Assembly: GCA_012295275.1 (NCBI GenBank)
Contig: CM022670.1
Location: forward strand, 7,071,161 to 7,135,160
DNA from: Chrysomallon squamiferum
Taxonomy: Eukaryota > Mollusca > Gastropoda > Neomphalida > Peltospiridae
DNA: 64,000 nt
Direction of reading: 5' to 3'
Both the position numbers and the translations under genes were made by a program. The notes under the pieces are model-generated. The model worked only from the letters and a program-made list of their open reading frames with translations. It made no database searches and was not told the origin of the DNA. This document shows positions 1,979-63,769 of this stretch, in pieces (within the stretch, counting starts at the first letter, position 1; each line of letters starts with the position of its first letter).

Positions 1979-2326
1979 TCAAAAGTCTTTTTCACATTTT
2001 GTAACTGTCGTCTGTAGAGGCGAGTTCGAGTGAGCATGCGCAGATGTGACAGGAAGTAAAATGTGATGATGGGAATGCCCAGAAGGCCCTGTTTGGATTG
2101 GCGGTGACTGTGATGTTGGTTTTATGTCATAATGATTCTGTGTTTGTTGCATTGACTGGTGATGTGTTGCCATTGACAACATTGGAGCCTGAAGCGCCAT
2201 CTGGTTCATCTGGTGTTGGACAGGGGGAGGTGACTCTGGTTCGATTTTTCCGGAAGTCTGAAAGCCTTCTTCTTTCTTCTTAACTTTCCTTTCTTTTGCA
2301 CGTCGATTTTGAAACCAAATTTTCAC
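1979..2326 (-). CDS. Cdx: Cdx coding exon 3: recognition helix and C-terminal tail
   Basis: The acceptor is CTTTTCAG|GTGAAAATTTGG. The exon encodes [14 protein letters not shown], a basic KKKEEG stretch, and a tail rich in Gln, Met, Pro and His. It ends with TGA at 1981-1979. No further coding exon is needed. Confidence 0.97.
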   Translation of the reverse strand: MKIWFQNRRAKERKVKKKEEGFQTSGKIEPESPPPVQHQMNQMALQAPMLSMATHHQSMQQTQNHYDIKPTSQSPPIQTGPSGHSHHHILLPVTSAHAHSNSPLQTTVTKCEKDF

Positions 2327-63300: not shown

Positions 63301-63769
63301 AATTTCTTGTAAACTAGATCTTTTCTGAAAAATTTCTTTGTGTGATTTTTAATAATATTTTTATTTCTGTCTGTTGATACTGTTTTTGTTTTTAAATAAA
63401 TAAATAGAAAATAAATAAATACATACATACATACAAAATAAACAATAAGAAAAAAAAATAGAATAAACAAACAAACAAACAAACCTACAAATAAATAAAT
63501 AGAAAAAAAAGTAAGAAAAAAATAATTAATATATTAATAGTTTTAAACCATGTTTATTACACTCTTAATTTAACACAAAATATTTTTAATTTTTATAAAA
63601 TGTTTTTTCCTCTTTATTGACTGGTATTTTACTTCTGTCGACAGGCAGGTGGCGCAGGGTGTGGCTCTGAGGATAAACAATCCCAAAACCTACCACAGTG
63701 GGAACTACACAGTGAAAGCTTACACTCGGGACATGAATGCATCAGCCTCAGTCGAACTTCAAGTGATGG
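39258..63769 (+). CDS. PDGFR/VEGFR-type receptor tyrosine kinase, 5' part (signal peptide and Ig domains 1-4); runs off the window
   Basis: Exons: 39258-39321, 53558-53709, 59319-59493, 60267-60557, 60993-61132, 61838-62027, 62971-63133, 63645-63769; all GT-AG and in phase (1,0,1,1,0,1,2,1), 433 full codons. Residues 1-21 form a hydrophobic signal peptide. D1 spans residues 22-130 (C54, W62, DTGLYTC113), D2 131-227 (C160, C209), D3 228-337 (C254, W268, DDAGVYRC318) and D4 338-433 (W376, YHSGNYTV, no cysteine pair). The D2 type ([10 protein letters not shown] ... GGTFHC) and a disulfide-free D4 are features of the PDGFR/VEGFR/KIT class. Seven or so N-glycosylation sites are present (NKT, NFS, NIT, NDS, NIT, NYT, NAS). 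The remaining Ig domains, membrane segment and kinase would lie to the right. Kinase identity is inferred; a kinase-lacking Ig receptor is not excluded. An orthologue of Pvr/VEGFR is most likely. Confidence 0.85.
39357..39426. repeat. (TC)35 array in receptor intron 1
   Basis: It is a pure 70-bp array starting 36 bp after the exon 1 donor; on the sense strand it is (TC)n. Confidence 0.97.
39649..39718. repeat. (AC)n microsatellite
   Basis: AC units with a few interruptions. Confidence 0.93.
41940..42100. repeat. (ACAT)/(AC) imperfect array
   Basis: ACAC and ACATACAG units; open frames rich in Cys/Val on the minus strand are artefacts. Confidence 0.85.
43349..43384. repeat. (AC)n microsatellite
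   Basis: About 18 AC units. Confidence 0.93.
47738..47785 (-). mobile_element. Fragment of a tRNA-like SINE
   Basis: The minus strand reads TGTCACTTGGTTAGAGCAGT, an A-box-like tRNA head. The B-box side is degraded. Confidence 0.4.
47815..47991. repeat. (AC)n and (GT)n arms, 103 bp apart
   Basis: (AC) at 47815-47848 and (GT) at 47952-47991 are reverse complements and can pair. Confidence 0.9.
48155..48230 (+). mobile_element. Degenerate tRNA-like SINE
   Basis: GTGGCAGAGAGCTCATTTCC, then TGGTAGGTCTCGAGATCAAT, fits the A-box/B-box arrangement of a tRNA-derived SINE. Confidence 0.45.
49437..50007. repeat. Large (AC)/(ACAT)/(ACAG) array
   Basis: Nearly 570 bp of AC-dominated sequence with ACAT, ACAG and ACTC variants. 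His/Thr-rich open frames here are artefacts. Confidence 0.93.
50129..50282. repeat. (GT)n array
   Basis: About 150 bp of GT, beginning 120 bp after the AC array and complementary to it. Confidence 0.96.
51180..51660. repeat. (ACATA)/(AC) imperfect array
   Basis: About 480 bp of ACACAT, ACATAT and AC units. Confidence 0.9.
53558..59493 (+). CDS. Receptor exons 2-3: Ig domain 1
   Basis: Exons 53558-53709 and 59319-59493 join in phase 0. The first gives [19 protein letters not shown] and a WNMIQW strand, the second gives [11 protein letters not shown], the classic Ig D-x-G-x-Y-x-C motif. The 5.6-kb intron between them is full of (ACAT), (GT), (TC) and (GA) arrays and tRNA-like SINE scraps. Confidence 0.85.
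53741..54057. repeat. (ACAT)n, (GT)n and (GATA)n compound array
   Basis: Long ACAT run about 53813-53910, GT at 54004-54028 and GATA about 54038-54057, all immediately downstream of receptor exon 2. Confidence 0.93.
54599..54640. repeat. (GT)n microsatellite
   Basis: About 20 GT units. Confidence 0.95.
55268..55344. repeat. (TC)n array
   Basis: Pure 77-bp TC array in receptor intron 2. Confidence 0.96.
55394..55492 (-). mobile_element. tRNA-like SINE with poly(A)/(T) tract
   Basis: The minus strand reads GACAGCATAATGGTTAAGTC, then a B-box-like GTGGGTTCAAGGC, followed by a poly(T) run (poly(A) on plus, about 55394-55425). It is the clearest tRNA-like unit in the window, but pairing is too poor for a functional tRNA. 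Confidence 0.55.
56070..56150 (-). mobile_element. tRNA-like SINE fragment
   Basis: The minus strand reads GATATCGTGGTTAAATC, then GGTTCCGAGTTCAAACTCC with an intact B-box core. Confidence 0.5.
57270..57530. repeat. (GA)n array with degenerate flank
   Basis: About 90 bp of pure GA followed by GACAGA/GAAAGA variants to about 57530. Confidence 0.94.
58260..58500. repeat. (CCAT)n-like degenerate tetranucleotide repeat
   Basis: CCATCCAT, TCCATCTG and TTCATCCA units; Ile/His/Ser-rich open frames are artefacts. Confidence 0.8.
58510..58575 (-). mobile_element. tRNA-like SINE fragment
   Basis: The minus strand reads AAGGGTTAAAACAACAGAGC, then TAGGTTCAGTCCCCAGTGCC, a B-box-like end. It has the same orientation as the units at 55.4 and 56.1 kb. 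Confidence 0.5.
59536..59910. repeat. (TTTTA)n tract in receptor intron 3
   Basis: About 370 bp of TTTTA and poly(T), starting about 40 bp after the exon 3 donor. Confidence 0.93.
60006..60225. repeat. (ATT)n/(ACT) array upstream of receptor exon 4
   Basis: ATT-dominated array ending about 40 bp before the acceptor at 60265. It pushes A/T-rich sequence against the branch-point zone. Confidence 0.92.
60267..60557 (+). CDS. Receptor exon 4: Ig domain 2
   Basis: A single 291-nt exon encodes all of D2: [32 protein letters not shown] then FHC. D2 is the main ligand-binding domain in the PDGFR/VEGFR family. Phase 1 at both ends makes it an exchangeable unit. Confidence 0.85.
60993..62027 (+). CDS. 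Receptor exons 5-6: Ig domain 3
   Basis: Exons 60993-61132 and 61838-62027 join in phase 0. They give [36 protein letters not shown] and QTIYVY. The cysteine pair and Trp are intact. Confidence 0.87.
62740..62900. repeat. (GATA)n array upstream of receptor exon 7
   Basis: Imperfect GATA and AGAT units over about 160 bp, ending about 70 bp before the exon. Confidence 0.92.
62971..63769 (+). CDS. Receptor exons 7-8: Ig domain 4 without disulfide
   Basis: Exons 62971-63133 and 63645-63769 join CA|G in phase 2. They encode [42 protein letters not shown] and SVELQV. Where the two cysteines would be, Phe/Ile and Val are found, as in D4 of PDGFR, KIT and VEGFR. Confidence 0.85.

What the first reader, a model, noticed from the sequence alone, without database searches (positions are those of the whole stretch)
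1979..63769. Cdx, POMP and a PDGFR/VEGFR-type receptor linked: an apparent ancestral ParaHox neighbourhood
Directly seen: a caudal-class homeobox gene, POMP and a receptor with a D4-disulfide-free Ig ectodomain lie within 64 kb. Known from vertebrates: the ParaHox locus (GSX1, PDX1, CDX2) is followed by FLT3, FLT1 and POMP on human 13q12. Independent chance proximity of three unrelated genes in both lineages is unlikely, so I infer an old bilaterian linkage block retained in this invertebrate. IGHMBP2, in between, is elsewhere in human.
Basis: partly seen in the sequence, partly recalled or inferred. Interest (0 to 1): 0.85.

Follow-up and report, generated by a model that had tools for sequence, protein, structure and literature searches.

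The report
Ancient ParaHox neighbourhood in a snail
In a deep-sea snail genome three gut-patterning control genes still sit together, next to the same kind of growth-factor receptor and the proteasome-helper gene that flank them in people, which suggests that this stretch of gene order is older than the split between snails and vertebrates.

Summary
The window carries a complete Cdx gene, IGHMBP2, POMP and eight coding exons of a VEGFR-type receptor. Assembly size and scaffold count match Chrysomallon squamiferum. Gsx and Xlox lie 8 and 54 kb left of the window, so the three ParaHox genes span about 65 kb. The receptor runs past the right edge into a VEGFR-like kinase. UMP1 (POMP) and receptor-ectodomain matches in this genome fall only here. 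New detail: POMP and receptor are head to head, about 1.1 kb apart. In Gigantopelta, Cdx, receptor and POMP rows share one contig length; in two bivalves Cdx and POMP do. FLT1 beside Cdx is published for a hemichordate, CDX2-FLT1-POMP for cattle. Against: Platynereis Cdx has other neighbours, PAN3 is 30 Mb away here, ParaHox order is changed. I found no protostome report of Cdx with VEGFR and POMP, but one relevant snail paper went unread.

The parts
9822..10299 (-). Cdx exon 1 (start codon at 10299)
   Evidence: ORF, GT donor; 84% identical to Gigantopelta P0001
2682..2827 (-). Cdx exon 2, N-terminal part of homeodomain
   Evidence: GT-AG; Pfam homeodomain
1979..2326 (-). Cdx exon 3, homeodomain helix 3 ([14 protein letters not shown]) and C-terminus to stop
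   Evidence: PDB best CDX2/CDX1
22091..31315 (-). IGHMBP2 (SMUBP2) helicase gene in about 13 pieces, approximate ends
   Evidence: Pfam SMUBP-2_HCS1_1B, AAA_11, AAA_12, zf-AN1; ORF lists
38086..38182 (-). POMP first conserved exon (ATG at 38164; translation may instead begin in an unseen upstream exon), with a one-base frame break inside
37457..37517 (-). POMP exon
37000..37101 (-). POMP exon
   Evidence: UMP1 match
36532..36625 (-). POMP exon
   Evidence: Pfam UMP1
35546..35613 (-). POMP last exon to stop
39258..39321 (+). Receptor first coding exon, signal peptide [28 protein letters not shown] donor in phase with the next exon
   Evidence: tblastn of Gigantopelta receptor, 65% identity, E 0.014; sequence
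53558..53709 (+). Receptor exon, Ig D1 first half
59319..59493 (+). Receptor exon, Ig D1 second half
60267..60557 (+). Receptor exon, Ig D2 (Pfam VEGFR-1-like Ig, above cut-off)
60993..61132 (+). Receptor exon, Ig D3 first half
61838..62027 (+). Receptor exon, Ig D3 second half
62971..63133 (+). Receptor exon, Ig D4 first half, no cysteine
63645..63769 (+). Receptor exon, Ig D4 second half, no cysteine; the gene continues beyond the window
38183..39257 (.). 1.07-kb gap between the divergent POMP and receptor coding exons, candidate shared promoter region
   Evidence: sequence; promoter function is inference

Best explanation
This is the ParaHox locus of a peltospirid snail, most likely Chrysomallon squamiferum. 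All three ParaHox genes (Xlox, Gsx, Cdx) sit within about 65 kb, and beyond Cdx lie IGHMBP2, POMP and the only VEGFR/PVR-type receptor found in this genome. The Cdx-receptor-POMP neighbourhood is inherited from the common ancestor of protostomes and deuterostomes. Shown: gene identities, order and orientation, and that no second POMP or receptor ectodomain was found. Inferred: inheritance by descent. Inferred with less certainty: the block has held together because long-range control elements of Cdx and the receptor lie in or beyond their neighbours, with POMP and IGHMBP2 as bystanders; POMP and receptor may share a bidirectional promoter. Each gene most likely does its family's usual job (from established knowledge of the families, not tested): Cdx hindgut and posterior patterning, POMP proteasome assembly, the receptor VEGF/PVF signalling in vessels or blood cells.
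For: Gene models and family matches. Xlox and Gsx beside Cdx. Receptor kinase. Receptor ectodomain matched only at this locus and UMP1 only here. No N from left of Xlox to the window's right edge. Gigantopelta Cdx, receptor and POMP rows all show a contig of 102,884,749 bases; Sinanodonta and Pinctada imbricata Cdx and POMP rows show equal contig lengths. FLT1 next to Cdx in Ptychodera; PAN3, FLT1, POMP and SLC46A3 in a 1.07-Mb human 13q12 duplication; GSX1, PDX1, CDX2, FLT1 and POMP in 2.8 Mb of cattle chromosome 12. Chance estimates.
Against: Platynereis Cdx is flanked by SF1KHL, Rad50, Ccna and Exosc9 instead. PAN3, between FLT3 and FLT1 in human (recalled), is 30 Mb away on the same contig here. 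ParaHox order here is Xlox(-) Gsx(+) Cdx(-), not Gsx-Xlox-Cdx. In Sinanodonta the locus tags of Cdx and POMP differ by 651, hinting that they are not close neighbours there. IGHMBP2 has no counterpart at 13q12 (recalled). A fish control was mixed: equal contig lengths for CDX1 and a class III receptor in Polyodon (one of its two CDX1 rows), not in Hypomesus. The regulatory-block mechanism has no direct evidence here.
Confidence: 0.86

Rival explanations
1. Only chromosome-scale linkage is ancient. The genes share an ancestral chromosome, and local shuffling brought Cdx, POMP and the receptor together in this lineage by chance.
For: PAN3 is on the same contig but 30 Mb off; bivalve evidence is chromosome-scale only; Platynereis lacks the close neighbours.
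Against: Given one contig, the chance of POMP and receptor both lying within 100 kb of Cdx is about 2e-5, and a similar close set exists in mammals and in part in a hemichordate.
Confidence: 0.1
2. Assembly artefact: unrelated sequence joined by scaffolding.
For: The Chrysomallon assembly is Hi-C scaffolded and a 2500-base N run starts at the window's right edge.
Against: Xlox to receptor D4 is free of N; receptor exons on both sides of the N run match one Gigantopelta protein in order; Gigantopelta, an independent assembly, shows the three genes on one contig length.
Confidence: 0.02
3. The receptor is another kind of Ig-domain protein, so the 13q12 comparison fails.
For: Its Ig domains also match NCAM, titin and DCC.
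Against: The ten best PDB rows are VEGFR1, PDGFRA, VEGFR2, KIT, PDGFRB and CSF1R, the best spanning D1-D4; VEGFR-type D2 profile above cut-off; kinase exons of the same gene are 79-93% identical to a Gigantopelta kinase whose best kinase-only match is VEGFR2.
Confidence: 0.01

Closest known systems
Human/mammalian ParaHox locus, 13q12 in human (GSX1, PDX1, CDX2, FLT3, PAN3, FLT1, POMP; PMC13008896 and PMC8520274, passages; exact order and strands recalled)
   Same: All three ParaHox genes, a VEGFR-class receptor and POMP near Cdx; in human FLT1 and POMP are adjacent and divergent (recalled), as POMP and receptor are here
   Different: One receptor instead of FLT3 plus FLT1; IGHMBP2 present; POMP lies on the Cdx side of the receptor; PAN3 far away; ParaHox order Xlox-Gsx-Cdx; several times more compact
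Ptychodera flava ParaHox cluster (PMC3698058, passages)
   Same: Clustered Gsx, Xlox, Cdx with an FLT1 orthologue next to Cdx
   Different: POMP not mentioned in the passages seen (not searched for there); deuterostome
Platynereis dumerilii ParaHox loci (PMC2723086, abstract and sections 8, 9, 13)
   Same: Lophotrochozoan with neighbours that also map near human ParaHox genes
   Different: Cdx broken away; its neighbours are SF1KHL, Rad50, Ccna, Exosc9; FLT, PDGFR, VEGFR and POMP do not occur in the text
ParaHox genes of other molluscs (PMC7566022 and PMC9635652, passages)
   Same: Linked in Magallana hongkongensis and relatively closely linked in four further species named there
   Different: Broken in the majority of species, often with intervening genes; receptor and POMP neighbours not mentioned in the passages seen

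Membership tests
Cdx (caudal) class | Caudal-type homeodomain | tested here: met
   PDB best CDX2/CDX1, 115 bits against 88 for the next protein; 85% identical over full length to a Gigantopelta CHOX-CAD-like protein
Cdx, vertebrate type only | Pfam Caudal activation domain PF04731 (not required of mollusc Cdx) | tested here: not met
   Not found; also absent from the Gigantopelta protein and from the mollusc rows listed, present in the listed vertebrate CDX rows
POMP/UMP1 | UMP1 domain over its length | tested here: met
   Model 15-118 of 118, E 5e-32, on the joined exons after the first
Working POMP gene | Unbroken reading frame | tested here: not met
   One-base frame break in the exon at 38.1 kb; the Gsx homeobox has one too, so assembly error seems likelier than loss (inference)
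VEGFR/PDGFR (class III/V) receptor kinases | Ectodomain of class type with D4 lacking the disulfide | tested here: met
VEGFR subclass | Seven Ig domains rather than five (PDGFR, KIT) | tested here: inconclusive
   Gigantopelta orthologue has a cysteine pattern that would fit seven; in this genome D5-D6 were not seen and an N run begins at the window edge
VEGFR/PDGFR (class III/V) receptor kinases | Tyrosine kinase of the class | tested here: met
   Exons past the window match the Gigantopelta kinase, whose kinase-only PDB matches rank VEGFR2 355, VEGFR1 345, PDGFRA 308, FGFR1 303 bits (60 of 782 shown)
VEGFR/PDGFR (class III/V) receptor kinases | Position in a kinase tree | not tested
   No tree was built
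ParaHox cluster | Gsx, Xlox and Cdx closely linked | tested here: met
   Within about 65 kb on one contig, no N between
ParaHox cluster in canonical order | Order Gsx-Xlox-Cdx | tested here: not met
   Order is Xlox(-) Gsx(+) Cdx(-)
Bilaterian 13q12-type ParaHox neighbourhood | Same close neighbours in protostomes beyond this family of snails | tested here: inconclusive
   Chromosome-scale only in two bivalves; absent in Platynereis

The most novel reading that the evidence does not exclude
The bilaterian ancestor had an extended ParaHox regulatory block, Gsx-Xlox-Cdx plus a single VEGFR/PDGFR-class receptor head to head with POMP. This snail keeps it as a compact relic, so the lophotrochozoan ancestor had all three ParaHox genes together rather than a dispersed Cdx, and the POMP-receptor pair may be one of the oldest conserved divergent gene pairs in animals, perhaps with a shared control region.
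Probability: 0.45. Interest if true: 0.75.

Novelty: new member of a known kind. Interest (0 to 1): 0.62.

Why it matters
[quoted passage not shown] A snail with all three together, and with deuterostome-like flanks beside Cdx, argues that Cdx was never separated in this lineage. It also ties the receptor family behind vertebrate FLT, KIT and PDGFR genes to ParaHox before the protostome-deuterostome split, and gives a compact locus in which to ask why such blocks persist.

Tried and rejected
Rejected: chance proximity genome-wide. Rejected: cephalopod origin, my first guess from sequence style; homologues and assembly size point to Chrysomallon. No further protein gene was found inside the window: ten leftover ORFs, chosen mostly by codon score, gave no Pfam family, but most of the 75 leftover ORFs listed were not scanned. 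No Rfam family above threshold and no tRNA in the window. The search for POMP relatives gave only 12 proteins. Searches meant for CHIC (PF10256), FIP1L1 (PF05182) and URAD (PF09349; family-to-gene links recalled) in the own genome did not complete. A receptor kinase tree was not built.
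Full report
What is in the window. A caudal-type homeobox gene lies on the minus strand at 10,299-1,979 in three GT-AG exons with a complete 323-aa frame; an intron splits the homeodomain before [14 protein letters not shown]. The homeodomain scores 115 bits against CDX2 and CDX1 in the PDB and 88 against the next protein, an engrailed construct. IGHMBP2 occupies about 31.3-22.1 kb, minus strand. POMP follows between 38,182 and 35,546, minus strand (UMP1 5e-32 on the exons after the first). The receptor is on the plus strand: seven exons from 53,558 to 63,769 with GT-AG borders, and before them a coding exon with the signal peptide at 39,258-39,321, found with the Gigantopelta protein at 65% identity (E 0.014) and joined in phase by a GTAAGT donor. 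POMP and receptor therefore point away from each other. Their start codons are about 1.1 kb apart if POMP begins at 38,164; the Gigantopelta POMP has a few more residues in front, so an unseen upstream POMP exon is possible and would make the gap smaller.

Whose genome. The closest proteins are from the vent snail Gigantopelta aegis: Cdx 85%, receptor 67%, POMP 78% identical. The assembly that holds the window has 404,604,130 bases in 22 contigs; a published table gives 404,615,235 bases and 22 scaffolds for Chrysomallon squamiferum GCA_012295275.1 (PMC7566022, passages). Many of the best homeodomain hits cluster on contig 11 (not identified one by one), and the Chrysomallon paper puts its Hox genes on Chr11 (PMC7142155, passages). 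The tool gave no name, so the species is inferred.

Outside the window. A homeodomain search of the genome listed 119 matches; besides Cdx's own, two lie next to the window on contig 6. Read with their flanks, the one at 7,016,777 (minus) is Xlox: PDX1 is the best PDB match at 117 bits, next 92, with a separate first exon carrying FPWMK. The one at 7,063,155 (plus) is Gsx: GSX2 best at 92 bits, next 74, with a first exon beginning MSRSFLVDSLI. In window coordinates the homeoboxes lie at about -54.4 kb and -8.0 kb. From the Xlox homeobox to the Cdx start codon is about 65 kb without N. The order is Xlox(-) Gsx(+) Cdx(-) IGHMBP2(-) POMP(-) receptor(+). To the right, receptor exons for part of D7, the transmembrane segment and the kinase run to window coordinate 74.9 kb at 65-93% identity to the Gigantopelta protein. 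D5-D6 were not seen; 2,500 N begin right at the window edge, which may be a gap or a withheld stretch. The next gene to the right looks LMO7/LIMCH1-like (LIM above its Pfam cut-off; PDZ and DUF4757 below theirs), and left of Xlox is a fatty-acid hydroxylase exon (above cut-off).

The ten best PDB rows for D1-D4 are VEGFR1 (2e-25), PDGFRA (4e-24), VEGFR2, KIT, PDGFRB and CSF1R, the first three across D1-D4; 155 distinct sequences matched and 60 were shown, the unrelated Ig proteins among them over parts only. Pfam's VEGFR-1-like Ig domain is above its cut-off. D4 has no cysteine in either snail. The orthologue's PDB list (60 of 782 shown) is led by full-length KIT (367 bits, ectodomain plus kinase); among kinase-only entries VEGFR2 scores 355, VEGFR1 345, PDGFRA 308, FGFR1 303. 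In the own genome the listed matches to the ectodomain all fall at this locus and the rest are to the kinase region (36 matches listed; 34 of 247 candidates scored). Pfam UMP1 has two matches in the genome, both POMP exons of this window.

Is the linkage old. In the protein database the Gigantopelta Cdx, receptor and POMP rows all carry the contig length 102,884,749. Of the 12 POMP rows, 8 name a species with a contig length; 3 of those species also occur among the 120 listed Cdx rows (of 1,749 hits), and in 3 of 3 the two lengths are equal (Gigantopelta; Sinanodonta woodiana 166,674,347; Pinctada imbricata 65,244,353). Equal length means one chromosome, not closeness. As a rough control, two fishes had both CDX1 and class III receptor rows: Polyodon matched for one of its two CDX1 rows, Hypomesus did not. 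Published: FLT1 lies next to Cdx in the hemichordate Ptychodera flava (PMC3698058, passages); a 1.07-Mb human 13q12.2q12.3 duplication holds PAN3, FLT1, POMP and SLC46A3 (PMC13008896, passages); 2.8 Mb of cattle chromosome 12 holds GSX1, PDX1, CDX2, URAD, FLT1, POMP and SLC46A3 (PMC8520274, passages); receptor genes of this class flank several vertebrate ParaHox regions (PMC2020491, PMC4471637, passages). Gigantopelta and Chrysomallon are reported to share macro-synteny, with rearrangements only within chromosomes (PMC7895826, passages). That human FLT1 and POMP are adjacent and divergent, and that IGHMBP2 is at 11q13, is recalled.

Results against. In Platynereis, Cdx sits among SF1KHL, Rad50, Ccna and Exosc9 (PMC2723086, sections 8, 9, 13). 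PAN3 is on contig 6 but at 37.1 Mb. Cephalopods and Lottia are described with Gsx-Xlox linked and Cdx apart (PMC9635652, passages), a cone snail has no Cdx found (PMC8152183, passages), and most molluscs have a broken cluster, five species being named as exceptions (PMC7566022, passages). The Sinanodonta locus tags differ by 651. IGHMBP2, the gene nearest to Cdx on that side, does not fit the human comparison. ParaHox order is not the canonical one.

Chance. With 16,917 gene models and three neighbours, drawing at least two from a list of 14 13q12 genes has P 2e-6 genome-wide and 2e-4 within contig 6; POMP and receptor both within 100 kb of Cdx, given the same contig, about 2e-5. The list sizes are my recall and the window was chosen after the fact, so these are orders of magnitude only.

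How it works. Descent explains the shared neighbours. What keeps them together is not shown. The likeliest cause is control elements interleaved across the block with POMP and IGHMBP2 as bystanders; simple slow decay of gene order is nearly as likely. The POMP-receptor gap is a candidate shared promoter (inference). In the gastropod Gibbula, Cdx is expressed in the posterior digestive tract (PMC3710244, passages), which fits the usual role.

In print. Text searches gave no protostome report of Cdx linked to this receptor or to POMP: ParaHox with POMP and Cdx (11 papers, two opened: in one 'pomp' is in Nautilus pompilius, in the other the main text has none; nine not opened); ParaHox with 'proteasome maturation' (none); ParaHox with Flt1 (four papers, three opened); synteny, PDGFR, FLT1, mollusc (two papers, both opened); Pvr and microsynteny (none). 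Broader searches were seen as listings apart from the papers named here; the amphioxus paper PMC5803294 holds neither FLT nor POMP. Only open-licence papers are searched. PMC8848322, on a snail genome with ParaHox terms, was seen in a listing only.

Noticed in passing
window 38086-38182: One-base frame break inside the first conserved POMP exon; no second POMP was found in the genome, so an assembly error seems likelier than a pseudogene.
   Followed up: partly
contig 6, 7063100-7063300 (locus L015, about 1940-2140): The Gsx homeobox also carries a one-base frame break, a second hint of indel errors in this assembly.
   Followed up: partly
L016:1-2500: 2,500 N begin exactly at the right edge of the window, where receptor D5-D6 exons would be expected.
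   Followed up: no
L018-L020 (window coordinates about 89-106 kb), minus strand: LMO7/LIMCH1-like gene (LIM above cut-off, PDZ and DUF4757 weak); human LMO7 is on chromosome 13 and LIMCH1 on 4 (recalled), both ParaHox-bearing chromosomes.
   Followed up: partly
L009:8804-9055 (+): Fatty-acid hydroxylase exon left of Xlox, possibly FAXDC2-like; human FAXDC2 is on 5q near CDX1 (recalled).
   Followed up: no
window 20249-20569 (+) and 10568-10723 (-): Open frames with coding-like codon use but no Pfam family.
   Followed up: partly
window about 38.3, 39.3, 49.3-51.5, 55.2, 57.3 and 63.8 kb: Long GA/TC and CA/TA microsatellites in introns and between genes, including within the POMP-receptor gap and just after the first receptor exon.
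   Followed up: no
window 39322-53557: The receptor's first intron after the start codon is 14 kb with no gene detected, a place to look for control elements.
   Followed up: no
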